Below are positions 1,097 through 34,666 of a stretch of 40,563 nucleotides of DNA, piece by piece (position 1 is the first letter of the stretch; each line of letters begins with the position of its first letter). Under the pieces are notes generated by a model. The model saw only the letters and a program-made list of their open reading frames with translations, did not search any database and was not told the DNA's origin. Source of the DNA: Tissierellales bacterium (GTDB lineage: Bacteria > Bacillota > Clostridia > Tissierellales > JAOAQY01); the NCBI GenBank assembly GCA_025210965.1, contig JAOAQY010000183.1, positions 1 to 40,563 on the forward strand, read 5' to 3'. The position numbers and the translations under genes are program-made.

Positions 1097-2554
1097 TTAT
1101 TTTATATCAAGGTTTAAATTTTTAGTGTCAAATATCCTAAGACTATTTTCTACATTCTCTTCTAACGCTTTTTTGCCATATTCATCTACTGCATTTCTAT
1201 CTTTTTTACCATGCTTTAATGATGCTGGACCACCTATACATCCTCCTTTACATGCCATTCCTTCGATGAAATTGCCATTTAATTTACCCACTTTGGCCAT
1301 TAATAAAGCTCTATCACATTCCTCCGCTCCATCACATTTTACTGGCTTAAATTCAACGTCAATTTTCTTTTCGTCAATTACATGTCTCACTGCTTCACTT
1401 ACTCCACCTGACCTAGCAAAAATTCTTCCAAAGAAAGATGCATTGTTCATATCTATTTCATCACATTGATTCAAGTTAATATCTGCAGCATCAAATAACG
1501 CTGACAATTCTTCAAATGTCATCACATAATCTGTACTTTCTTTTAAATTGTCTCTGTATATTTCCATTTTTTTCGCTGTGCACGGACCAATAAATACTAC
1601 TATTGCATCAGAATCCATACTCTTTATAAGTCTTGATGTAGCTATCATCGGTGATACGCTATTGGATATCTTGTCTTTTAGCATAGGATATTTTTGATTT
1701 ATTAGCGCTACAAAAGCTGGACAACAGGATGTAGTCATAATTCCTTTTTCCTCTATTGTTTCTGCAAATTCACTAGCTTCATGTTCTGCTATCAAATCTG
1801 CTCCTAACGCAGCCTCTACTATATCGTGAAAACCTATCTTTTTTAGTCCACTTATAACCTGCCCCACACTAGCATAGTCAAATTGACTAGAAACAGCTGG
1901 TGCTACAACTGCATATACGTTTGGACCATTTTTTTCTTTTGAATTTTTTAAAACCTCTATTATTCTTACAATATCAGATTTATCCTGAATTGCTCCAAAT
2001 GGACATTTATAGACACAAGCACCACATTGTATGCATTTTGAATCATCTATAACCGCCATTTTTTGCTCATTTATAGATATCGCTTTTGCAGGACATGCCT
2101 TTATACATGGTCTCATTATATCTGCTATCGCATTATACGGACATGCATCTCTACATTTACCACATTCAATGCATTTATTTTGATCTATATATGCCTTGTG
2201 ATCTACATATTGTATAGCTCCAACTGGACATACTTCCATACATTGATGTGCTAAACAACCTCTACATGTTTCAGTAACTACAAATCTATTCGCCGGACAT
2301 TGATCACAAGCAGATTCTAACACTTCTATTATGTTTTCTCTACTTCTATCCCCACCCATAGCAAGTTCTACTCTACTTTCAGTTATTGCTCTTTCATGAT
2401 ATATACAGCATCTTCTTCTAGGCTCCGGACCTGGATCGACTATTTTGGGTATATCTCTATAATTTTCAAACAGCTTTCCACTCAAAGCCATTTTAGAAAC
2501 CTCTCTCAAAACTTCATATTTTACTAACTGAACTTCACTCTCAAATTTTCTCAT
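1097..2554 (-). CDS. [FeFe] hydrogenase, group-B-like, with N-terminal 4Fe-4S clusters
   Basis: 485 residues. Reversible H2 oxidation or proton reduction at an H-cluster, cytoplasmic. The N-terminal half carries many cysteines: C83/C86, C97/C100/C105/C109, C128-x2-C-x2-C-x3-C138, C150/C154 and C174-x2-C-x2-C-x3-C184, consistent with several 4Fe-4S clusters. The C-terminal half has all three H-cluster signatures: TSCCPAF at 275-281, GPCTAKK with C325, and MACKGGC with C435 and C439. The proton-transfer cysteine (C277) is present, so this one should be catalytic. The TSCCPAF form and the domain layout resemble group B enzymes such as the second hydrogenase of Clostridium pasteurianum; that assignment is inference. 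It is the last gene of an operon with the sensory hydrogenase and phosphatase. The ribosome binding site (GGGAAAA) is weak, which may keep its level below that of the upstream genes. Confidence 0.92.
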   Translation of the reverse strand: MRKFESEVQLVKYEVLREVSKMALSGKLFENYRDIPKIVDPGPEPRRRCCIYHERAITESRVELAMGGDRSRENIIEVLESACDQCPANRFVVTETCRGCLAHQCMEVCPVGAIQYVDHKAYIDQNKCIECGKCRDACPYNAIADIMRPCIKACPAKAISINEQKMAVIDDSKCIQCGACVYKCPFGAIQDKSDIVRIIEVLKNSKEKNGPNVYAVVAPAVSSQFDYASVGQVISGLKKIGFHDIVEAALGADLIAEHEASEFAETIEEKGIMTTSCCPAFVALINQKYPMLKDKISNSVSPMIATSRLIKSMDSDAIVVFIGPCTAKKMEIYRDNLKESTDYVMTFEELSALFDAADINLNQCDEIDMNNASFFGRIFARSGGVSEAVRHVIDEKKIDVEFKPVKCDGAEECDRALLMAKVGKLNGNFIEGMACKGGCIGGPASLKHGKKDRNAVDEYGKKALEENVENSLRIFDTKNLNLDIK

Positions 2555-2590
2555 ATATTTTTTCCCACTTTCTCTTGATTATTCACCCAT

Positions 2591-3757
2591 CTAATAATAA
2601 TAAACATTAACTATTTTACCTAATTCTCTAACTACTCTAATTAAATTATCCACAACTTTTAATTTTATACTTAAGTCAATAGGAAAATCTGGATTTTGAT
2701 GTGCTGGATTTACAGCTTTTCCTATTCTTAAATTCAAATGAGTGCAATCTTCTATAAGCATTTTTGCCAAAACAGTTGCTCCATCTTTTTCTTTCAATGT
2801 AACAACCTCTTCAGATTCAACATTACAATACTCTTTTATAACATCTATAGCTCTGCTAAGTGTAAGAACGCCTTCTGTTACCAAATCAATCCCCTTTATT
2901 TTCGCAGTAGGTGGAACTTTAGGATTTATATAGTCTAAATTTATTTCCATCTCTCTATTTAATTCTCGAGATATAATCTTAGCTGCCGTTCCTCCACAGA
3001 CTATTTTCTTTCCCTTATCTCTCATAAATTGTTCTACCAAAACAGAATCATTGTCAGGATCTACTGGTGGTCCAGTAAATAAATCTATTATCTCTGGTTC
3101 TCTAATCTTTAATGCTGCAACAGTTGTATCATCTCCGGGCTTGTTTTCATATAAACATTTACATACATCTAGCAATCCTTTTGAAATATTTTCTGCGCAT
3201 TTTTCTTTTGTAACATTTTTCACCAAATAATCTGCTACATTTTCCCATTGCCATCCTAGATTCAATATAGCCCCCACACCAGCGTGGATAACTCCATCAC
3301 TTACCAATACCAATACATCATCTAGTTCTATATCAAAAAAACTTTCTTTAATAAGCCTTCCGTTTAATATATGGTCTTTCTTTTCAATATCTAATATTTC
3401 ACCATTTCTTATCACAAATACTGGTGGATTATCATATTCTATAATATGGCACTTGCTATCTTTACTTATTTGTATTATTCCAAATGTAGAATACGCTAGC
3501 TTTCTAACACTACATACTGGCAACGTATTAGTTATAGTATCAACAGTTTCCTCTATGCTAACCCCATCTCTAAGCATTGTACCTGCCATCTTACTAGTCA
3601 TAGTAGCTAATATATTTGCTTTAACCCCACTTCCTAGTCCATCTGCTAAAACTATGAATGTACTCTCTTCATTTTGGAAAATTTCAACATTATCCCCACA
3701 CAATTCTTCTCCATACTTGTTGACACTATCGTATGAAATGTCAATAAAGTAACTCAT
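2591..3757 (-). CDS. SpoIIE-family (PP2C-type) serine/threonine phosphatase
   Basis: 388 residues. Metal-dependent protein phosphatase, cytoplasmic, presumably acting on a phosphoserine or phosphothreonine partner such as an anti-sigma-factor antagonist. The catalytic domain spans about 1-215: GDN at 21-23, ADGLGSG at 38-44, SDG at 153-155 and GDD at 208-210, which supply the metal-binding aspartates. Residues about 220-388 form a second domain that I do not recognise (notable stretch CGGTAAKIISREL near 254-266). No membrane segment or PAS domain is present, so the input probably comes from the neighbouring HydS, whose gene ends 2 bases upstream. Tight packing between the sensory and catalytic hydrogenase genes suggests it carries the H2 or redox signal. 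Family call is firm; target is unknown. Confidence 0.88.
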   Translation of the reverse strand: MSYFIDISYDSVNKYGEELCGDNVEIFQNEESTFIVLADGLGSGVKANILATMTSKMAGTMLRDGVSIEETVDTITNTLPVCSVRKLAYSTFGIIQISKDSKCHIIEYDNPPVFVIRNGEILDIEKKDHILNGRLIKESFFDIELDDVLVLVSDGVIHAGVGAILNLGWQWENVADYLVKNVTKEKCAENISKGLLDVCKCLYENKPGDDTTVAALKIREPEIIDLFTGPPVDPDNDSVLVEQFMRDKGKKIVCGGTAAKIISRELNREMEINLDYINPKVPPTAKIKGIDLVTEGVLTLSRAIDVIKEYCNVESEEVVTLKEKDGATVLAKMLIEDCTHLNLRIGKAVNPAHQNPDFPIDLSIKLKVVDNLIRVVRELGKIVNVYYY

Positions 3758-3759
3758 TT

Positions 3760-5490
3760 TTATTCACCAGCCTCGCCCAATGTTATATTTTTTAATTTAG
3801 TCAATATGACTTTTGTTTCAGCTGTTGTTTCTCCCAGCAAACTAGCTATTTCTTGGGCAACTCTCATTTGCTTTTCAATAACTTCTTGAGCTGAATTTAT
3901 TGTCGTTTCTTTGACTCTTGCCAATTCTTTTCGGCTCTTTTCCTCTTGAGTAACATCTGTAAGAATTGCTAATACTATGCCTTCTTTTTCGATATATATT
4001 ATATTTTGATATATAACTGCTCCATAATTTGCGAATTCTTTTTTCTCACTTATTATATTTTTACCACTTTCAATGACTTTAGCAAAATCAGAATCGTCAA
4101 TGATCATAGATATTGGTTTGCCAACAAGATCCTCTGCCTGTACGTTAAATAACTCTTCTCCTGCTGGATTGATTTCTTTGACAAAAAGCTCTTCATCTAG
4201 CATCAATATTACATTTGGACTCCTTCCAAATATTATATTTCTAAGACTCTCTGCCTTCGCTCTCATATACGGTAAGCACATAGTTATATCACTCATTCCC
4301 TCATATACCGCCTGAGCCTTCTCTCTACAAGTCAAATATCCACAAGCATTGCAGTTAAGTTCATCTTCGGGTCTAAACTTGCCCATTTTTCTCAAAATAG
4401 CCGTTATCTCACTCTCACTTGCTTCTCTTCTTATTACTTTTCTATCAATAAATAACTTTCTATAATCCATTTCTTTTTGTTCTTTTGTAAATAATTCAGC
4501 ATTAACCTTCCAATAATCTTGCTCTTTTTCAACATATTCTCGTACTCTACGTTCCCTAACGTAATAATTATCCTTATTTTTAGGCATACCAGGACCATCT
4601 ACACAGCTCCCCATGCAAACATTTATTTCTATACAGCTTTTTGTGATATCTTCATTTTTCAGTGCATCTAATATATCCTTACATCGATCGACTCCATCAA
4701 CTCTAATAATTTCGTACTTATCTTTCGCAGCTTTTTTAACCTCTTCATTTATAAGTCCTCCCCCAATCGGAAAAGCTCTCCCCCTATGGTAAGATGCCTT
4801 ATCAAAATCAGTTATATTCAATTTTTTCAAATCTATATTGTCTTCAGAAAACCATTCGCTAAGCTCTTCAAACGTCAAAACAGAATCTATTAATGTCCTA
4901 TGTTCCGGTTCCTCTGCTTCAGCTTTTTTAGCTAGACATGGACCTATAAATACCATATAATTATCCATTCCATAGTGATGTTTCATGATTTTACCATGAG
5001 CTAACATGGGTGATACTACCGGCATCATATACTTAACTAATTCTGGATAATACCTTTCAATCATATAGTTAGCCGAAGGGCAACTTGTCGTTATAAGATT
5101 TTTTTTATCACCCTTTTCTATTTGCTTCTTATAATAATCGGAAACAATTTCTGCTCCTATAGCCGTTTCCTCGACTACATCAAATCCTAGTAATTTTAAC
5201 CCCGTAACGATCTGCCTAGCATCATCTAAATCAAATGCTCCTACAAAAGATGGTGCCAAACTTACTAGTACTTTTTTTTCACTGCTGATCGCCATCTTAA
5301 CTCTATCTATATCGCTTATTATAGTAAGTGCATTTTGCGGACATATCTCTTGACATTCTCCACATTTGATACACATCTCATCTACTATCTCAGCATAATC
5401 CTCCAATATAGTAATTGCTTTAGATGGACATTTTCTCAAGCATTTATAACAATGATTACATTTTTCGGTGTCAAAATGAATAAATTTCAT
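3760..5490 (-). CDS. hydS: Sensory [FeFe] hydrogenase with PAS domain (HydS-like)
   Basis: 576 residues. Domains in order: two 4Fe-4S ferredoxin motifs (C11-x2-C-x2-C-x3-C21 and C40-x2-C-x2-C-x3-C50); H-cluster domain about 70-310; a further 4Fe-4S motif (C380, C383, C388, C405); PAS domain about 411-515; a C-terminal amphipathic, probably coiled-coil tail. H-cluster signatures are TTSCPS at 134-139, GPCLAKK with C185, and VCMGSC with C292 and C296. The four cluster ligands are kept, but the cysteine that normally shuttles protons in TSCCP is a serine (S136). Known sensory (group C/D) enzymes also lack this cysteine and have low turnover, so this is very likely an H2 or redox sensor rather than a bulk catalyst. 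The PAS and coiled coil could pass the signal to the phosphatase encoded 2 bases downstream. A GGGAGG ribosome binding site precedes the ATG. Confidence 0.9.
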   Translation of the reverse strand: MKFIHFDTEKCNHCYKCLRKCPSKAITILEDYAEIVDEMCIKCGECQEICPQNALTIISDIDRVKMAISSEKKVLVSLAPSFVGAFDLDDARQIVTGLKLLGFDVVEETAIGAEIVSDYYKKQIEKGDKKNLITTSCPSANYMIERYYPELVKYMMPVVSPMLAHGKIMKHHYGMDNYMVFIGPCLAKKAEAEEPEHRTLIDSVLTFEELSEWFSEDNIDLKKLNITDFDKASYHRGRAFPIGGGLINEEVKKAAKDKYEIIRVDGVDRCKDILDALKNEDITKSCIEINVCMGSCVDGPGMPKNKDNYYVRERRVREYVEKEQDYWKVNAELFTKEQKEMDYRKLFIDRKVIRREASESEITAILRKMGKFRPEDELNCNACGYLTCREKAQAVYEGMSDITMCLPYMRAKAESLRNIIFGRSPNVILMLDEELFVKEINPAGEELFNVQAEDLVGKPISMIIDDSDFAKVIESGKNIISEKKEFANYGAVIYQNIIYIEKEGIVLAILTDVTQEEKSRKELARVKETTINSAQEVIEKQMRVAQEIASLLGETTAETKVILTKLKNITLGEAGE

Positions 5491-5493
5491 CGT

Positions 5494-5739
5494 CTAAAGC
5501 CTCCCTAATATATCTTTTCTAAAAAAGTCCTCCACTGTCTCTTCGCTTACAGAACACACATCATCTTCATTTACCTTCACAGATACTGCTTGAGTACACT
5601 CGCCTAAGCAAAATGCCGCTTTAACCATAACCTCTTCTTGCACATTGTTTTCTTGTATCATTTCCTGCAATCGATTAATTACATTATAAGACCCTTTTAA
5701 GTGACAAGCACTGCCAATACAGACATTAATAGTTACCAT
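5494..5739 (-). CDS. Thioredoxin-like [2Fe-2S] ferredoxin domain protein (HydC/NuoE C-terminal type)
   Basis: 81 residues counting from the ATG at 5739, which has an ideal GGAGG site 7 bases upstream; a longer reading from further upstream has no such site. Cysteines C-x4-C (C7, C12) and the CLGEC pair match the 2Fe-2S thioredoxin-like fold found at the C-terminus of NuoE and HydC. It would move electrons to or from the hydrogenase modules of this operon. It is first in the operon and ends 3 bases before hydS. A free-standing short version next to HydS suggests a dedicated electron donor for the sensor or for the final hydrogenase; that is inference. Confidence 0.85.
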   Translation of the reverse strand: MVTINVCIGSACHLKGSYNVINRLQEMIQENNVQEEVMVKAAFCLGECTQAVSVKVNEDDVCSVSEETVEDFFRKDILGRL

Positions 5740-5788
5740 AGTTAACCCTCCTAGAAATTTACATAATAAGTTCTGTTTAATCACCTTT

Positions 5789-5817
5789 AGTATATCTTAT
5801 TGTTAAGTATTTATCAA
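5789..5817 (-). promoter_or_regulatory. Promoter of the hydrogenase/HydS operon
   Basis: Minus strand: TTGATA (5812-5817), 17-base spacer, TATACT (5789-5794). Predicted transcription start is about 5782, some 43 bases before the first ATG. I see no clear operator palindrome on it. Confidence 0.75.
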
Positions 5818-5873
5818 TCTTTTTTATTTGGATTTCTTTTTACGCTTTTTTAACAATTTAGACTAAAATAAAT

Positions 5874-5904
5874 AAACCATCCTTTGCTTTAATAAGGATG
5901 GTTT
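5874..5904 (-). terminator. Terminator after fchA (end of histidine operon)
   Basis: Perfect 11-bp stem (5874-5884 with 5894-5904) and a 9-base loop, followed on the minus strand by a T/A-rich run. It lies 17 bases beyond the fchA stop codon and upstream of the hydrogenase promoter. Confidence 0.8.
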
Positions 5905-5920
5905 ACTACAATTATTCAAA

Positions 5921-13649: not shown

Positions 13650-13701
13650 TGATAATTATTATCTTTTGATACATATTATCATTTAGGTCTTTTTTTGTCA
13701 A
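13650..13701 (-). promoter_or_regulatory. Promoter with two Fur-like boxes for the DUF2325 gene
   Basis: Minus strand: TTGACA (13696-13701, overlapping the stop codon of the upstream kinase), 17-base spacer, TAATAT (13673-13678). One Fur-like site at 13650-13664 reads TGATAAT-T-ATTATCT, 13 of 14 defined positions of the 7-1-7 consensus. A second inverted repeat, TGATA-CATAT-TATCA, at 13667-13681 overlaps the -10. Confidence 0.75.
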
Positions 13702-16316
13702 GCTCTCTTTAAATTTTTTTCTAACTCTTCATACAATTCTTTGCATCCATCTACATCGTGTTTCCTCGATGTCATTTGTATTTTAAATGCATATTTCTTT
13801 ATAGTCATCTGATTTTCCTCTTCAGCTAAATATTTTACTTTTTTTGCCAAATTTTCTATTTCTCCAAAGTTATTTGAATTCTGTACTTTATTTCCCAAGA
13901 CTTCAAGCGTTTGTTTTAAACTACTTCCTATGATAGCAATCTCTGCTGTATTCCTCTTTTTATTTATACTATCCTTTGCTTTTTGGACTAACTCATCAAT
14001 TTGAACATTTTCTTTCTCCATCTTATCCGCATAGTAGCTAGTATATTTATTTATAACATCGTAAAATTTAGAAACTTCCAGTGGTTTTGACAAGTAATCA
14101 TCCATTCCAGCTTTTATAAATCTCTCCCGATCACCTTGCAACGCATGAGCTGTAATTGCAATTATAGGAACATGATTTTCAATATCTTTTTCCATAGCTC
14201 TAATTCTTTTTGTCGCTTCGATTCCATCCATTTCTGGCATCTGTATATCCATCAAAATTATATCGAAATATTCTTTTTCATATAGTTCTAGTGCTTCTAC
14301 TCCATTATTAGCTAATAGTATTTGGTGCCCTTGTTTTTGAACTAAATTTAATGTAACCATTTGATTTATTTGATCGTCTTCTACAAGCAAAACTTTCAAT
14401 TTTTTCAGCGCTTTTGGTATTACAAAATCATCCTCGCCTTCAACAGCTTTCACATCACTCGATCCTAGGTTTATACAAAATCTAAAACAAGTACCAACAT
14501 GTTCTTCGCTCTCTACTTCTATGCTTCCACCCATCAATTCAATTAATTGTTTAGTAATAGAAAGTCCTAATCCTGTCCCTCCAAATCTTCTAGTTATTGA
14601 ACCATCTACCTGACTAAAACTTTCGAACAATCTATCTAAATTGTGCTCAGCTATTCCAATTCCACTATCTCTCACTTCAAACTCCAAAACAACTTCATTA
14701 TTCCTTTTGCTCTTAAGTCTAGCATCTACTTGTATACTGCCAAACTCTGTAAATTTAAGTGCATTACTCAGTAAGTTATTTAGTATTTGTTGTATTCTAT
14801 TTGGGTCGCCAATAAAATTATTTTCACAACTAAAATGAATATTGTATTTCAACTCTAAACCTTTTTCATCCGATTTGAATTTAAAACTACTAATAATCTT
14901 CTTTATCAAATTTTCTAGATTAAATGGTATCTTTTCAAGAACTATTTTTCCAGCTTCTATTTTTGAAAAGTCCAATATATCATTTATCAATTTGATTAAA
15001 GTTTCAGCAGAGCTTTTTACCAAATCTAAATTTTCTCTCTGCTCTTCTGTCAAATCTGTCATCAGTGTTAAATTGGTCATACCAATTATTCCATTGACTG
15101 GCGTTCTTATTTCGTGGCTCATATTTGCAAGAAATTGGCTTTTAGCTTTATTTGCATGTTCTGCAACTTCCATTGCCTTTTTAAATTTTTCCTGTGCATC
15201 TTTTTTAATAGTTATATCCCTACAAGAATATATCTTTCCTTTTATACCCTCCTCTTCAATTTCATTTATTGCCGCCTCTATCCAAATATACGGTCCTCCA
15301 AACGTTTTAACCCTTATTTCCACAACTTCATCTAAATTTTTTTTACCGATTTTCTGTTGTGAAAGCCAGCTTCTATCTTGTGGATGAATAAATTCATGTA
15401 CTGGTTTTCCTATAACTTTATTGTAATTATAACCAAGCAGGCGTTCCGTTGATGGACTAGCATATTCTATTGTTCCTAGATCATCAGTTTGGATAATAGC
15501 ATCTTTCATATTTTTCGTTATTGTATTTAGTCGAGCCTCTCGCTCTCTTAATTTTTCTGCCATTTTTTTAGATTCTGTTATGTCTTGTTTTATACCTAAA
15601 AAACTAGTTACTTCACCATCATGATCGATTATAGGGGTGATCCACGCCTTCTCCCAATAAAGCGTTCCATCTTTTTTCCTATTCAGAAACTCTCCTTGCC
15701 AGGCTTTTCCACCTTCTATAGTACTCCACAATTCTTTATAGTAATTTTTATCATGATAGGATGATCTCAATATACTTGGATTTTTTCCAACTACTTCTTG
15801 AAAAGAATACCCCGTTATTTCTTCAAATTTTTGATTCACATACTCAATCTGTCCATTAGTATTTGTTATTAGTATAGATGTCGGATTTTGTTCAACCGCT
15901 CTCGAAAGCGTTCTTAGTTGTTGTTCGTTCTTTACCAATCTAGAAACATCTCGAAAAACAACAACCATACCAAATATCTTCTCACCAATTATTATAGGAG
16001 TACAATTTGCGGATAAATAATATGCATTTCCATGATTATCATATATAACCGAATTCCTTTTTAAATGCATTATTTGACCATTCTCCAAAACTTTTTCAAA
16101 TATATTTTCGATCAATATATTCTCTTTATAATCATATATTTTTAATACATTTCGAATATTTTTCCCAAGTAAATTTTTTTCAGTCTTCAATATCTCCAGT
16201 GCTTTAGGATTGTAAAAAATAATTTTTCCACCTGCATCTGTGTGAATCAATCCATCTCCGATGCTTTCAAGTACCTTTGCCAAAAACATAGGATTTCTCT
16301 CAAATTCTCCAATCAT
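13698..16316 (-). CDS. Hybrid sensor histidine kinase: three PAS, kinase, receiver, degenerate HPt-like tail
   Basis: 872 residues from the ATG at 16316; an ATG one codon upstream is also possible but sits too close to the GGTG site (residue numbers here count that extra Met). No membrane segments, so a soluble sensor. Domains: PAS about 10-130, PAS/PAC about 135-255, PAS about 260-375; HisKA with SHEIRTP and phospho-acceptor H402; HATPase with NALKF, DSGIGIA and GGTGLGL (to about 618); receiver about 640-760 with phospho-acceptor D691 and K746-type SKP. Residues 770-873 align with an HPt helix bundle, but the position of the phosphorylated histidine is F845 (KKYAFKIQM). It lies 5-8 bases after cheR, so both are probably cotranscribed. 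Signal and output partner unknown. Confidence 0.88.
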   Translation of the reverse strand: MIGEFERNPMFLAKVLESIGDGLIHTDAGGKIIFYNPKALEILKTEKNLLGKNIRNVLKIYDYKENILIENIFEKVLENGQIMHLKRNSVIYDNHGNAYYLSANCTPIIIGEKIFGMVVVFRDVSRLVKNEQQLRTLSRAVEQNPTSILITNTNGQIEYVNQKFEEITGYSFQEVVGKNPSILRSSYHDKNYYKELWSTIEGGKAWQGEFLNRKKDGTLYWEKAWITPIIDHDGEVTSFLGIKQDITESKKMAEKLREREARLNTITKNMKDAIIQTDDLGTIEYASPSTERLLGYNYNKVIGKPVHEFIHPQDRSWLSQQKIGKKNLDEVVEIRVKTFGGPYIWIEAAINEIEEEGIKGKIYSCRDITIKKDAQEKFKKAMEVAEHANKAKSQFLANMSHEIRTPVNGIIGMTNLTLMTDLTEEQRENLDLVKSSAETLIKLINDILDFSKIEAGKIVLEKIPFNLENLIKKIISSFKFKSDEKGLELKYNIHFSCENNFIGDPNRIQQILNNLLSNALKFTEFGSIQVDARLKSKRNNEVVLEFEVRDSGIGIAEHNLDRLFESFSQVDGSITRRFGGTGLGLSITKQLIELMGGSIEVESEEHVGTCFRFCINLGSSDVKAVEGEDDFVIPKALKKLKVLLVEDDQINQMVTLNLVQKQGHQILLANNGVEALELYEKEYFDIILMDIQMPEMDGIEATKRIRAMEKDIENHVPIIAITAHALQGDRERFIKAGMDDYLSKPLEVSKFYDVINKYTSYYADKMEKENVQIDELVQKAKDSINKKRNTAEIAIIGSSLKQTLEVLGNKVQNSNNFGEIENLAKKVKYLAEEENQMTIKKYAFKIQMTSRKHDVDGCKELYEELEKNLKRA

Positions 16317-16324
16317 CATTTCAC

Positions 16325-17128
16325 CTACTTTACATATATTGATGGTTTTACATACTTAAATGGAACTATGTTTCTGTCAATACTTTCAGAGTGACCTATA
16401 AACAAATGACCTCCACTATCTAATACATTATAAAATTTCTTCATAATCTCGTGCTTAGTTTGAAAATCGAAATAGATCATAACATTCCTACAAAATATGA
16501 CATCAAAATTCTTTTTAAACCTATAGTCGCTTAATAAATTAAGTCTTCTAAACAAAACCTCATCCTTTAACTTATTTGTTATATTGACCTCTGTACTTGT
16601 CAATTTATCAAAATACTTCTTGTAATAATAATTAGGTACTTCCATTACGTCATCCTTTTTATAAGAACCGGTTCTAGCTACAGCAAGTACCTTATCTGAT
16701 ATATCTGTGGCTAATATTTGTGTATTCCAAAGTGTTTTTTCTTTTCCAAAAAAATCATCAATAATCATAGCTAAAGTATATGCTTCTTGTCCTGAAGAGC
16801 ACCCAGCACTCCAAATTCTGAGGTCTCTATCTTTTTTTACTTTTTTCAAATATGGTAATACTTCATTTCTAAAGTATTCAAAGTGCTCTTTTTCTCTCCA
16901 AAAATAGCTATGATTTGTAGTTATTCTATTCAAAAACTCTTTCATTAAATTACCCGATTCATCACTTCTAACCGCATTCATATAACTCGAAAATGAATCA
17001 TATGATTTTTCTACAATATAATTTTCAAGCCTTGCCGCAACTAATGCTCTCTTCTTTTCCGTTAAGTTTATACCGTAATTTAACTTTACAAATTGTGATA
17101 TTTCTAAAAACTCCTTATTTGTAAGCAT
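16325..17128 (-). CDS. cheR: Chemotaxis protein methyltransferase CheR
   Basis: 267 residues. Transfers methyl groups from S-adenosylmethionine to glutamates on chemoreceptors. It has the N-terminal helical domain (about 1-75), then TTNHSYFWRE and the SAM-binding RIWSAGCSSGQEAYTLAM, and near the C-terminus FDVIFCRNVMIYF, all standard. No CheB, receptor or CheY is adjacent; the next gene is the hybrid kinase. The ATG has a GGAGG site. The promoter region contains a 22-base element nearly identical to one in front of cheA. Confidence 0.93.
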   Translation of the reverse strand: MLTNKEFLEISQFVKLNYGINLTEKKRALVAARLENYIVEKSYDSFSSYMNAVRSDESGNLMKEFLNRITTNHSYFWREKEHFEYFRNEVLPYLKKVKKDRDLRIWSAGCSSGQEAYTLAMIIDDFFGKEKTLWNTQILATDISDKVLAVARTGSYKKDDVMEVPNYYYKKYFDKLTSTEVNITNKLKDEVLFRRLNLLSDYRFKKNFDVIFCRNVMIYFDFQTKHEIMKKFYNVLDSGGHLFIGHSESIDRNIVPFKYVKPSIYVK

Positions 17129-17241: not shown

Positions 17242-17523
17242 AAATCAAATATACAAATGCAGTGACAAGGAGAGTACGTTGAGTTGGTAGTTTTAGCGAG
17301 TCGATGATGGTGAAAGTTCGATACGGATACCCAATGGAAGAACACCTTTGAGCAGCTGTCCGAAACTTTTACGAAGTAGGCACAGCCGGTTCCAAACCGT
17401 TATTTTTGGTAGATATCGAGCTCTAGTCTCCGTATCGATGAGTGATTTTATTTTAAAATAATTTGGGTGGTACCGCGTAAGTTCAGTCTTTCGTCCCATA
17501 TGTGGGATGATAGACTTTTTTTA
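17242..17523 (+). promoter_or_regulatory. Asparagine-specific T-box leader
   Basis: A T-box riboswitch that senses uncharged tRNA. Seen: the conserved T-box GGGTGGTACCGCG at 17465-17477 followed by a terminator hairpin; stem I with the loop GGATACC near 17324-17331; and a specifier loop in which the codon AAC (17341-17343) is followed by A. AAC reads asparagine, matching the downstream asnA. When tRNA-Asn is uncharged, its acceptor end should pair with the T-box bulge and favour the antiterminator. Confidence 0.92.
17485..17523 (+). terminator. T-box attenuator terminator of asnA
   Basis: Hairpin with outer stem AGTCT/AGACT and inner stem TCCCA/TGGGA, loop TATG, then seven T residues. It competes with the antiterminator of the T-box. 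The remaining leader to the asnA ribosome binding site (17524-17592) holds nothing else I recognise. Confidence 0.9.
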
Positions 17524-17606
17524 TACCCAAAAATATTATTTTGCAAGCGTCCGGATGCTTATGCACTTATATTTTTATTTATACCATAATTTAAGGAGTG
17601 ATTTTA

Positions 17607-18617
17607 ATGGAAAAACTAATTATGCCAAAAGACTATAAAGGATCTCTTTCACTAAGAGAAACAGAACTAGCTATCAAGAAAACTAAGGATTTCTTTCAGA
17701 AGGAACTATCTAAAACATTAAACCTTACAAGAGTTTCAGCACCACTATTTGTAAGACCAGAAACTGGGCTAAACGATAACTTAAACGGAACAGAATCTGC
17801 AGTTAGTTTCAACGTCAAAGACGCCGACTCTTGCCATGCAGAAATAGTACACTCTTTAGCAAAATGGAAAAGAATGGCTCTTCATAGATATGATTTCGGA
17901 TTATATGAAGGACTTTATACTGATATGAACGCTATACGATGTGAAGAAGATTTAGATAACATTCATTCTATATATGTTGATCAATGGGATTGGGAAAAAA
18001 TAATACCAATGGTTGATAGAACAGAAGAAAAATTAAAAGAAACTGTTAGAAAAATTTATTCAGTTTTTAAGAGAACTGAACTTTATCTTTCTCTTGAATA
18101 CTCTACTCTTCACCCAATATTGCCTGAAGATATTTCTTTTGTAACAACTTATGAATTGGAAAGTCGCTTTCCAGATTTAACTCCAAAAGAAAGAGAATAT
18201 GAAATAGCTAAAGAAAAAGGAGCTGTTTTCATCATGAAAATTGGTGGAAAATTAGCTTCTGGCGAAAAACACGACGGTCGTTCTCCTGACTACGACGATT
18301 GGACTTTAAACGGAGACATCATATTCTATTACCCAGTTTTAGATATAGCTTTGGAACTTTCTTCGATGGGTATTCGTGTAGATGCCGAAGCATTGACTAA
18401 ACAATTAGAAATAGAAGGTTGTTCTGAAAGAGCATCTCTTCCTTTCCATTCAAAATTATTAGCAGGTCAACTTCCTCAAACAATGGGTGGTGGAATTGGA
18501 CAATCTAGAATATGTATGTTTTTCTTAAGAAAAGCTCATATAGGTGAAGTTCAAGCCTCGATTTGGCCTGAAGATATGCAATCTATTTGCAAAGAAAAAG
18601 GAATAAGACTTTTATAA
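17607..18617 (+). CDS. asnA: Aspartate-ammonia ligase (asparagine synthetase A)
   Basis: 336 residues from the ATG at 17607, which has AAGGAG 8 bases upstream; an in-frame GTG at 17598 overlaps that site and is unlikely. Makes asparagine from aspartate, ammonia and ATP; structurally related to class II aminoacyl-tRNA synthetases. Family blocks: LRETELAIKKTKDFFQ, KWKRMALHRYDFGLYEGL near 105-125, DQWDWEK, GRSPDYDDW and the C-terminal GGGIGQSRICMF motif 3. Single gene unit behind an Asn T-box, ended by a bidirectional terminator. Full length. Confidence 0.97.
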   Translation: MEKLIMPKDYKGSLSLRETELAIKKTKDFFQKELSKTLNLTRVSAPLFVRPETGLNDNLNGTESAVSFNVKDADSCHAEIVHSLAKWKRMALHRYDFGLYEGLYTDMNAIRCEEDLDNIHSIYVDQWDWEKIIPMVDRTEEKLKETVRKIYSVFKRTELYLSLEYSTLHPILPEDISFVTTYELESRFPDLTPKEREYEIAKEKGAVFIMKIGGKLASGEKHDGRSPDYDDWTLNGDIIFYYPVLDIALELSSMGIRVDAEALTKQLEIEGCSERASLPFHSKLLAGQLPQTMGGGIGQSRICMFFLRKAHIGEVQASIWPEDMQSICKEKGIRLL

Positions 18618-33036: not shown

Positions 33037-34479
33037 CTATTTCTTCATTTTTACAAAATGATTAATATCCTGTGTTTCAAATAATTCCGGATAGAACATC
33101 ATAGCCAAATCTTCTATATAATCATAAGTGTGAGCTAAATCTTGATAAAAATTAGGTGCTTGATACCAAGCATTATTTTCTTTAACAAACTTTGCATTTT
33201 CAAGAAGTGGTGTCTCTTCAACCAGTGATTTAATAGAATCTGGTCCTCCATACTGTGGCATAGAAGATGAAATCATTATTTCCGCATCCTTAAACTTCAA
33301 ATAGTATTCTTCCGCGCTTACATTTTTTTGATCTTTAGTAATAGCTTTTCCTAAATAATCTCCTCCAGCAAGATCAATCATCTCTGCTACATATGATTCT
33401 CCTGGTGCTATATTGTATGTCTTAGAATATGTTGAATACGCTCCCCAAGCAATCTTTTTTCTATTCTCAATTCCATCTATCCTCTGTTTTAAATGCTCAA
33501 GTTTTTCTACTTGTTCATCATAATATTTCATAGCAGCTTTATCTTTATTTAGAAGAGCGCCCCAAAACTTAACCGTCTCTAATCTTCCAAATGCCCTGTT
33601 CTCTTCATAATCGAAGCAGCCAATATATTTATAACCTAGCTCATCATATTTTGCTTTATCATCCCATGCTGATGTCATAAGTATAAGCTCTGGTTTAAGT
33701 AATTCTAACGATTCAAAGTTTATGCTCATACCATTTCCTACATTGGATACCTTGCCTTCCAATATCTTATTTTTCATTTCTTCAATTGTCCATACTTCAG
33801 CTGGATTAGTAACTCCTGTAACAACATCCATAGAACCAAGTGCATTTAACATGGACACTTGAGTTGTAGAACCAGCCATAACATTTTTCATAGGCGTTCT
33901 AATCACCTTCAAATTTTCATAACCATCTGGTATCTGATTGCCATTTGGAACTAGTAAAAATTCCTGTTCTAAAGAATCCTTTATTTTTTTATTACCATTT
34001 CCCAAATATTCGATTTCAAATTTAGTTGCATAATCTAAATCTGCTTTTCCAATAGGCATACTATCATTTATATTTACAGCGCTTTCTTTCTCATTCCATT
34101 TCACATCGCTATCTAAATTTTCTGCTACAAATCTAACTGGAACAAGTGTCGTACCAGACTCGACCTTAGGAGCAATTTCTAAACTTACACTTTCACCATT
34201 TACTAACGCTGTCTTTTTACCTATCTTTAATTCTATATTTTTGCTATCTTCTGCCAATTTTATAGTTTGATTTTCTTGATTCCAACTAACTTCTGCTCCA
34301 AGAGCTTCTGCTATAGCCCTAAGCGGCACTAATGTTCTACCATTTTCAATTTTTGACGAAACTGAAGTCTCTATGTGCTCTCCATTTACAAATAAATTTA
34401 CGACATTAGCTGCAAATACGTGCGTCGACATCAAAAGACTGATAGCAATAACATTCAATCCTAATTTCCATTTTTTCAT
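33037..34479 (-). CDS. btuF: Corrinoid/iron-chelate binding protein with N-terminal copper-amine-oxidase-like domain
   Basis: 480 residues. Signal peptide about 1-24 with a signal peptidase I-type site (VFA-AN) and no lipobox cysteine. Residues about 26-140 contain two copies of the stalk-type domain seen in clostridial surface proteins (VNGEHIET...GRTLVPLRAIAEALGAEVSW and VNGESVSL...GTTLVPVRFVAENL; PF07833 type). Residues about 190-470 are a class III periplasmic binding protein (PF01497 type: GVTNPAEVW, NFESLELLKPELILMTSAWDD, WGAYSTYSKTYNIAPGESYVAEMIDLAGGDYLG). First gene of a riboswitch-controlled operon. How it stays on the cell without lipid is unclear; the stalk domain may hold it in the wall. 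Confidence 0.88.
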   Translation of the reverse strand: MKKWKLGLNVIAISLLMSTHVFAANVVNLFVNGEHIETSVSSKIENGRTLVPLRAIAEALGAEVSWNQENQTIKLAEDSKNIELKIGKKTALVNGESVSLEIAPKVESGTTLVPVRFVAENLDSDVKWNEKESAVNINDSMPIGKADLDYATKFEIEYLGNGNKKIKDSLEQEFLLVPNGNQIPDGYENLKVIRTPMKNVMAGSTTQVSMLNALGSMDVVTGVTNPAEVWTIEEMKNKILEGKVSNVGNGMSINFESLELLKPELILMTSAWDDKAKYDELGYKYIGCFDYEENRAFGRLETVKFWGALLNKDKAAMKYYDEQVEKLEHLKQRIDGIENRKKIAWGAYSTYSKTYNIAPGESYVAEMIDLAGGDYLGKAITKDQKNVSAEEYYLKFKDAEIMISSSMPQYGGPDSIKSLVEETPLLENAKFVKENNAWYQAPNFYQDLAHTYDYIEDLAMMFYPELFETQDINHFVKMKK

Positions 34480-34499: not shown

Positions 34500-34660
34500 T
34501 TTTGATGGCATAAAAATACGCAAAGCGTAGTTTTTATCATCCTCGTGATTCTGCGCTTAAATCTGAAATTGGTAGTCTGATTCGTATCTTTTAGATCATT
34601 ACAGTAGCGGGACTATATTGGAATCTCACCAAATTTCCCCAATCTCAAGTTTAAATTTCA
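34500..34660 (-). promoter_or_regulatory. Cobalamin riboswitch
   Basis: Minus-strand RNA with the cobalamin-aptamer core: GGGGAAATTTGGTGAGATTC, then a CAATATAGTCCCGCTACTGT block, then GAATCAGACTACC (B12-box type). A terminator hairpin ends it 30 bases before the binding-protein gene. When corrinoid is bound, transcription should stop. Confidence 0.9.
34512..34535 (-). terminator. Riboswitch expression-platform terminator
   Basis: TACGC/GCGTA stem with AAA/TTT loop, flanked by A5 and T5 tracts; on the minus strand it is followed by TTTTTAT. Confidence 0.75.
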
Positions 34661-34666
34661 TCATCA

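What the first reader, a model, noticed from the sequence alone, without database searches (positions are those of the whole stretch)
1097..5739. Four-gene H2/redox-sensing operon: 2Fe-2S protein, HydS, PP2C phosphatase, catalytic hydrogenase
The sensory hydrogenase keeps all H-cluster cysteines but has serine (S136) at the proton-shuttle position, while the last gene keeps cysteine (C277). A SpoIIE-type phosphatase sits between them with 2- and 36-base gaps. Published HydS proteins are known to pair with a second hydrogenase or a phosphatase gene; here both plus a free-standing 2Fe-2S module form one transcription unit. Serine at the shuttle position is less common than alanine as I recall. 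This suggests a full sense-and-respond module whose phosphatase target is unknown.
Basis: partly seen in the sequence, partly recalled or inferred. Interest (0 to 1): 0.75.

Follow-up and report, generated by a model that had tools for sequence, protein, structure and literature searches.

The report
Known hydrogen-sensing hydrogenase operon (hfsABCD)
This is a normal copy of a four-gene operon, already known in ethanol-making and rumen bacteria as hfsABCD, in which a hydrogen-sensing protein and a phosphatase accompany a hydrogen-making enzyme; its supposedly unusual features are standard in its relatives.

Summary
On the minus strand, 5739..1097, four tightly packed genes encode a thioredoxin-like [2Fe-2S] protein, a PAS-containing sensory [FeFe] hydrogenase (Ser136 at the shuttle position), a SpoIIE-type PP2C phosphatase and a group B [FeFe] hydrogenase (Cys277). 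It matches the hfsABCD operon of Thermoanaerobacterium (hydS/hydA2 in Ruminococcus albus), which has published knock-outs and transcriptomes. In the window's order, 39 of 40 recovered loci keep hfsB-hfsC and 22 keep hfsD. Ser136 is the norm among the closest relatives (all of the top 12 hits). The position is labile (at least 22 changes on a 121-protein tree; Cys 70, Ala 24, Ser 15), and the other proton-pathway residues are replaced whichever residue sits there. Details added here: a Rex operator (5800-5817) over the operon promoter, as predicted for T. saccharolyticum; a conserved C-terminal phosphatase domain without a Pfam family; adhE, rex and an APH-fold kinase in the same operon of relatives. 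Verdict: new member of a known kind. The most surprising thing seen, a nuclease-dead-looking TnpB-like gene linked to hfs in 12 other genomes, is absent from this genome.

The parts
5494..5739 (-). hfsA: 81-aa thioredoxin-like [2Fe-2S] protein, first gene of the operon
   Evidence: PF01257 35.4 bits; four ligand-type Cys C7/C12/C44/C48; RBS AGGAGGG before ATG 5739
3760..5490 (-). hfsB/hydS: 576-aa sensory group C [FeFe] hydrogenase with C-terminal FeS motif and PAS; Ser136 at the shuttle position
   Evidence: PF02906 196 bits, PF04060, PAS_9/PAS; Cys conservation; active-site columns
2591..3757 (-). hfsC: 388-aa SpoIIE-type PP2C phosphatase (residues 1-221) plus conserved C-terminal domain (222-388) without a Pfam family
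   Evidence: PF07228 60.8 bits; invariant D22/D39/G40/D154/D209/D210; model pLDDT 86.8, PP2C match Z 24.8; no Pfam match for the C-terminal domain
1097..2554 (-). hfsD/hydA2: 485-aa monomeric group B [FeFe] hydrogenase, Cys277 at the shuttle position
   Evidence: TIGR04105 605.4 bits, cut-off 450; C277 and the E279/E282/S319 equivalents kept
5800..5817 (-). Rex operator TTGATAAATACTTAACAA (1 mismatch to TTGTTAANNNNTTAACAA)
   Evidence: the only site with at most 1 mismatch in the window; 8 such sites genome-wide against 0 for the reversed control
5789..5817 (-). sigma-A-like promoter TTGATA-17-TATACT, overlapped by the Rex operator
   Evidence: 10 of 12 matches; the number of promoter-like sites in the region is not above shuffles, so position and overlap are the argument
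5864..5905 (-). terminator-like hairpin of the upstream ftcD-type gene, separating it from the hfs operon
   Evidence: AAACCATCCTT...AAGGATGGTTTATTTATTTT read directly in the sequence; not picked up by the terminator scan

Best explanation
It is an hfsABCD operon under probable Rex control. Inferred working: when NADH is high, Rex leaves the operator and the operon is transcribed. HfsD evolves H2 from reduced ferredoxin. HfsB/HydS binds H2 at a slow H-cluster and passes a redox or occupancy state through its ferredoxin-like clusters, the extra C-terminal [4Fe-4S] cluster and perhaps HfsA to its PAS domain. The PAS domain switches the PP2C phosphatase HfsC. HfsC removes a phosphate from a factor that sets the balance between H2/acetate and ethanol formation (AdhE expression or activity, possibly HfsD itself). 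Shown by sequence: gene content, order, intact catalytic residues and the Rex-type site. Shown by others in relatives: the link between hfsA/B/C/D and adhE and ethanol. Inferred: H2 as the signal, HfsB-HfsC contact, and the substrate. Ser136 is a clade trait in a proton path that is dismantled anyway; it is not the key to the mechanism.
For: Domains and catalytic residues; the same four genes named hfsABCD with knock-out phenotypes and the R. albus cluster with adhE and phosphatase falling 111-fold at low H2; order kept in 39 of 40 (B-C) and 22 of 40 (with D) loci of the window's order and in 79 of 81 (B-C) and 30 of 81 (ABCD) in the class; Rex box over the promoter, Rex gene present, sites also before adhE and an Fe-ADH of this genome, 17 of 121 hfs loci with at most 1 mismatch against 0.8 expected, and a published prediction of a Rex site before T. 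saccharolyticum hfsABCD; adhE, rex and kinase genes inside hfs operons of relatives.
Against: No experiment exists for this organism. H2 as ligand of HfsB is not proven even in T. saccharolyticum, and there deletion of hfsB raised hydrogenase activity, which could have other causes. PMC13277313 suggests that HfsABC may itself evolve H2. Promoter and operator rest on sequence alone. The tight adhE/kinase arrangement of some relatives is not present in the window genome.
Confidence: 0.75

Rival explanations
1. HfsB is not a sensor but a working, slow hydrogenase; HfsA and HfsB (perhaps with HfsD) form an electron-transfer or H2-producing complex and HfsC only tunes that complex.
For: All cluster ligands are kept; residual H2 in hfsD hydA double mutants led others to propose an active HfsABC (PMC13277313); 70 of 121 HfsB even keep the shuttle cysteine.
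Against: The E279, E282, R286, S319, M353 and M497 equivalents are replaced in nearly all HfsB, with or without the cysteine; hfsA/B deletion has regulatory effects stronger than deletion of all four genes; HfsB carries a PAS domain.
Confidence: 0.15
2. HfsC works by classical partner switching: it dephosphorylates an anti-anti-sigma (STAS) protein that an RsbW-like kinase phosphorylates.
For: PP2C domain close to SpoIIE and RsbU-type domains; a HATPase-like gene sits next to the group D hydrogenase elsewhere in this genome (L168; assigned by eye).
Against: No STAS or RsbW-like gene was among the recurrent neighbours of hfs in 121 loci; the recurrent kinase is instead an APH/RIO-fold protein in 18 loci.
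Confidence: 0.2
3. Ser136 is a functional specialisation that sets this HydS apart (for example slower proton exchange giving a longer-lived signalling state).
For: Serine is consistent in the window's closest relatives (12 of the top 12 by score).
Against: The site changed at least 22 times on the tree, with Ser and Ala interspersed among closely related Clostridium species; no association of Cys with hfsD linkage (independent pairs, median p = 1); the A131C exchange in T. maritima HydS changed activity only by 20-40% (PMC10055695).
Confidence: 0.08

Closest known systems
hfsABCD operon of Thermoanaerobacterium saccharolyticum / thermosaccharolyticum
   Same: Same gene order and kinds: HfsB with PAS, HfsC serine phosphatase, HfsD ferredoxin hydrogenase; predicted Rex site upstream (PMC5707799, PMC11837493, PMC5886521)
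   Different: The GQ354412 proteins were not aligned here. HfsA is described there as matching no known protein well; here gene 1 is a clear thioredoxin-like 2Fe-2S domain
hydS-hydA2 cluster of Ruminococcus albus 7
   Same: Group C sensory hydrogenase, phosphatase and ferredoxin-only hydrogenase in one unit (PMC6776011, PMC10838669)
   Different: The R. albus unit has eight genes including adhE; here adhE is on another contig (C38), though also behind a Rex-type box
Thermotoga maritima HydS (group C, M2f)
   Same: Domain layout, altered C299/M353/M497 positions, lost E279/E282/S319 pathway (PMC10055695)
   Different: Ala131 and Ser267 there; Ser136 and Asn at the M497 position here
SpoIIE/RsbU-type PP2C phosphatases
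   Same: PP2C fold and metal-ligand aspartates
   Different: Carries a C-terminal domain of about 165 residues, conserved in HfsC, with no Pfam family; its model is Rossmann-like with a borderline resemblance (Z 8-10) to a domain of NuoG and formylmethanofuran dehydrogenase

Membership tests
hfsABCD operon | 2Fe-2S protein, PAS-hydrogenase, SpoIIE-type phosphatase and ferredoxin-type hydrogenase in this order on one strand | tested here: met
hfsABCD operon | Rex operator upstream of hfsA | tested here: met
   5800-5817, 1 mismatch, overlaps the promoter; binding itself not tested
hfsABCD operon | Effect on ethanol/adhE when hfsA or hfsB is deleted | not testable with these tools
   Shown in Thermoanaerobacterium only
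Group C sensory [FeFe] hydrogenase (HydS, M2f) | H-domain with the four H-cluster cysteines | tested here: met
   C137, C185, C292, C296, invariant in 121 of 121
Group C sensory [FeFe] hydrogenase (HydS, M2f) | Cx2Cx4Cx16C motif and PAS domain C-terminal to the H-domain | tested here: met
   C380/C383/C388/C405; PF04060 33.3 bits, PAS (PF00989) 23.5 bits over cut-off 22.6
Group C sensory [FeFe] hydrogenase (HydS, M2f) | Altered second-sphere residues (C299, M353, M497) | tested here: met
   S, G, N
Group C sensory [FeFe] hydrogenase (HydS, M2f) | Low turnover and shifted H-cluster potential | not testable with these tools
   Needs purified protein
Group B monomeric [FeFe] hydrogenase | TIGR04105 over cut-off; shuttle cysteine and E279/E282/S319 kept | tested here: met
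   605 bits against 450; C277 and the pathway residues
SpoIIE-type PP2C phosphatase | PF07228 over cut-off and metal-ligand aspartates | tested here: met
   60.8 bits against 25; D22, D39, D154, D209, D210 invariant; fold Z 24.8 to 3pu9
Partner-switching (SpoIIE/RsbU) pathway | Linked STAS anti-anti-sigma protein and RsbW-like kinase | tested here: inconclusive
   None among the recurrent neighbours of hfs in 121 loci; distant partners cannot be excluded

The most novel reading that the evidence does not exclude
HfsC acts directly on a fermentation enzyme (AdhE or HfsD) instead of on a transcription factor, making the operon an H2-gated, post-translational switch of electron disposal. The APH/RIO-fold kinase encoded beside it in 18 related loci would be the opposing kinase, and the family-specific C-terminal domain of HfsC would recognise the redox enzyme or a dinucleotide.
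Probability: 0.15. Interest if true: 0.6.

Novelty: new member of a known kind. Interest (0 to 1): 0.22.

Why it matters
The operon itself adds one more genome to a known H2-response module that decides between H2/acetate and ethanol in fermenting bacteria. What may be useful is narrower: the alignments show that the shuttle residue in this family is labile and that cysteine, not alanine, is commonest among PAS/phosphatase-linked HydS of Clostridia, so that residue should not be used to call a protein sensory or catalytic. The recurrent adhE, rex and kinase neighbours name concrete candidates for the phosphatase's partner.

Tried and rejected
(1) Raw counts suggested that HydS linked to hfsD keeps the shuttle cysteine (34 of 36 in the class sample). 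Rejected: on the tree the independent-pairs test shows no association, and Ser is linked to hfsD throughout the window's close relatives. (2) Ser136 as a rare or diagnostic feature: rejected. (3) The APH-fold kinase found beside hfs in many relatives was sought in the window genome: no match, so it is unlikely to be the universal counterpart of HfsC. (4) C-terminal domain of HfsC: no Pfam family; Foldseek E 0.014 at best, VIA-align Z 8-10 to a Rossmann-like domain of NuoG/FwdB, just above background, so no kinship is claimed. (5) For the TnpB-like gene in relatives, a guide match to the hfs promoter was sought: the 23-base match in L088 lies beyond the RNA's terminator and is a copy of a repeated AAAACCGTATCT operator-like element, not a guide. 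(6) The plus-strand ORF 1074-1469 lies antisense to hfsD and shows no sign of being a gene.

Full report
What is there. Four genes run on the minus strand from 5739 to 1097 with gaps of 3, 2 and 36 bases. In order they are an 81-aa thioredoxin-like [2Fe-2S] protein, a 576-aa PAS-containing [FeFe] hydrogenase, a 388-aa SpoIIE-type PP2C phosphatase and a 485-aa monomeric group B [FeFe] hydrogenase. A hairpin with a T-rich tail at 5905-5864 closes the upstream histidine-degradation-type gene, so the four genes form their own unit. The GTG start at 5784 for gene 1 is unlikely, because it falls at the expected transcription start; ATG 5739 has a clear ribosome site.

What it is. The same four genes in the same order are the hfsABCD operon of Thermoanaerobacterium, first reported in 2009, with HfsB = HydS and HfsD = HydA2 of Ruminococcus albus (PMC11837493, PMC5707799, PMC13277313). 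Single-gene deletions are published: loss of hfsA or hfsB raises adhE expression and ethanol yield about 1.8-fold, and this needs hfsC and hfsD. In R. albus an eight-gene cluster with the sensory hydrogenase, a phosphatase subunit, the ferredoxin-only hydrogenase and a bifunctional alcohol/aldehyde dehydrogenase falls 111-fold when a partner removes H2 (PMC6776011).

How common it is. In an even draw of 291 genomes of the class, 91 have a strong HydS match. Of 81 copies recovered with flanks, 79 are followed directly by the phosphatase, 69 have the 2Fe-2S gene in front, and 30 have the complete ABCD order; contig ends count as absence. In the window's own order, 58 of 150 genomes have a match. 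Of 40 loci recovered, 39 have hfsB-hfsC (the other is cut off by its contig end) and 22 also have hfsD. The same result shows that the arrangement is ordinary.

The shuttle residue. Among 121 HydS gathered here, nearly all linked to the phosphatase gene, the counts are Cys 70, Ala 24, Ser 15, others 12. In the window's order (window included) they are Cys 20, Ser 18, Ala 3, and the twelve closest relatives all have Ser. The residue changes at least 22 times on the 121-protein tree. The equivalents of E279, E282, R286 and S319 are replaced in nearly every HydS whatever the shuttle residue is, while the neighbouring HfsD keeps E279, E282 and S319. In T. maritima HydS, putting in the cysteine (A131C) lowered activity only moderately. 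Ser136 is therefore best read as a clade habit at a site that matters little.

Control by Rex. Within the window only one site matches TTGTTAANNNNTTAACAA with at most one mismatch: 5800-5817, lying over the -35 element and spacer of the promoter of this operon. The whole genome holds eight such sites and none for the reversed control pattern; others lie just before adhE (C38) and before an iron alcohol dehydrogenase gene (C34). A Rex gene is present. Across 121 hfs loci, 17 have such a site within 250 bases upstream, against 0.8 expected from random stretches of the same loci. A Rex site before hfsABCD was already predicted in T. saccharolyticum (PMC5886521), so this too confirms known biology.

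The phosphatase and its target. HfsC keeps the PP2C metal-ligand aspartates and the fold (Z 24.8 to 3pu9), so it is probably active. Residues 222-388 form a separate conserved domain (pLDDT 88) with no Pfam family; the nearest solved structures are Rossmann-like domains of NuoG and formylmethanofuran dehydrogenase at Z 8-10, which is only suggestive. In relatives the hfs operon also contains adhE (18 loci), an APH/RIO-fold kinase (18 loci, always with HGD..PSN and DW motifs) and rex (9 loci). These are the natural candidates for the phosphatase's circuit. The window genome has AdhE but shows no match to that kinase.

Verdict. Observation confirmed; interpretation partly supported; a new member of a known kind with low interest in itself.

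A side finding in relatives. Of 291 class genomes, 12 carry a TnpB-like protein, and in all 12 it lies on the hfs contig directly after hfsC or after an adhE that follows hfsC. Its C-terminal half matches TnpB (E 6e-7), and residues at the RuvC catalytic positions appear replaced (judged by eye against motifs known to me). Downstream of its stop is a conserved RNA-like element with a helix GGTG/CACC and a possible pseudoknot GCTGC/GCAGC that shows compensatory variants (GCTAC/GTAGC, GCTGT/ACAGC) and no Rfam match. No guide target was found. It is absent from the window genome.

Noticed in passing
L088:8898-10508, L094:8888-10441, and L089-L092, L098-L101, L105, L108 (not in the window genome): A TnpB/Cas12f-like protein of 486-539 aa, with residues at the RuvC catalytic positions apparently replaced, occurs in 12 of 291 class genomes and always directly downstream of hfsABC or hfsABC-adhE: a candidate domesticated, RNA-guided-type regulator of hydrogen/ethanol genes.
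   Followed up: partly
L088, L090-L092, L094, L098-L101, L105, L108: about the first 150 bases after the stop of the TnpB-like gene: Conserved structured RNA-like element (5' GGTG..TTTGCTGCC..CACC, 3' GCAGCTATCT, then a terminator) with compensatory changes in a helix and a likely pseudoknot; no Rfam family; no guide target found.
   Followed up: partly
L088, L089, L090, L092: about 100-140 bases upstream of hfsA: Two copies of AAAACC[GA]TATC(T) spaced about 33 bases apart upstream of the hfsA promoter, and a further copy behind the TnpB-like gene of L088: an unidentified operator-like repeat.
   Followed up: no
L168:8035-9276 (G000:C94), the window's own genome: A group D-like [FeFe] hydrogenase with histidine at the shuttle position (SSHCPAV), next to DRTGG-, HATPase- and PHP-looking genes and just upstream of an Rnf-type operon (neighbours assigned by eye only).
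   Followed up: partly
L041, L046, L052, L080: Tandem hfsB-hfsA-hfsB-hfsC arrangements with two HydS copies; in L080 one copy has Cys and the other Phe at the shuttle position, a natural paralogue pair for testing its role.
   Followed up: no
L044 (Clostridium tepidiprofundi) and L082: hfsA-hfsB-hfsD without the phosphatase gene between them: a natural loss of hfsC from the operon.
   Followed up: no
window 17253-17501 (+) and 34522-34662 (-): A T-box leader in front of asnA (17598-18617) and a cobalamin riboswitch upstream of the gene at 33037-34479.
   Followed up: no
window 13698-17128 (-): A multi-PAS hybrid histidine kinase (873 aa) next to a CheR-type methyltransferase gene.
   Followed up: no
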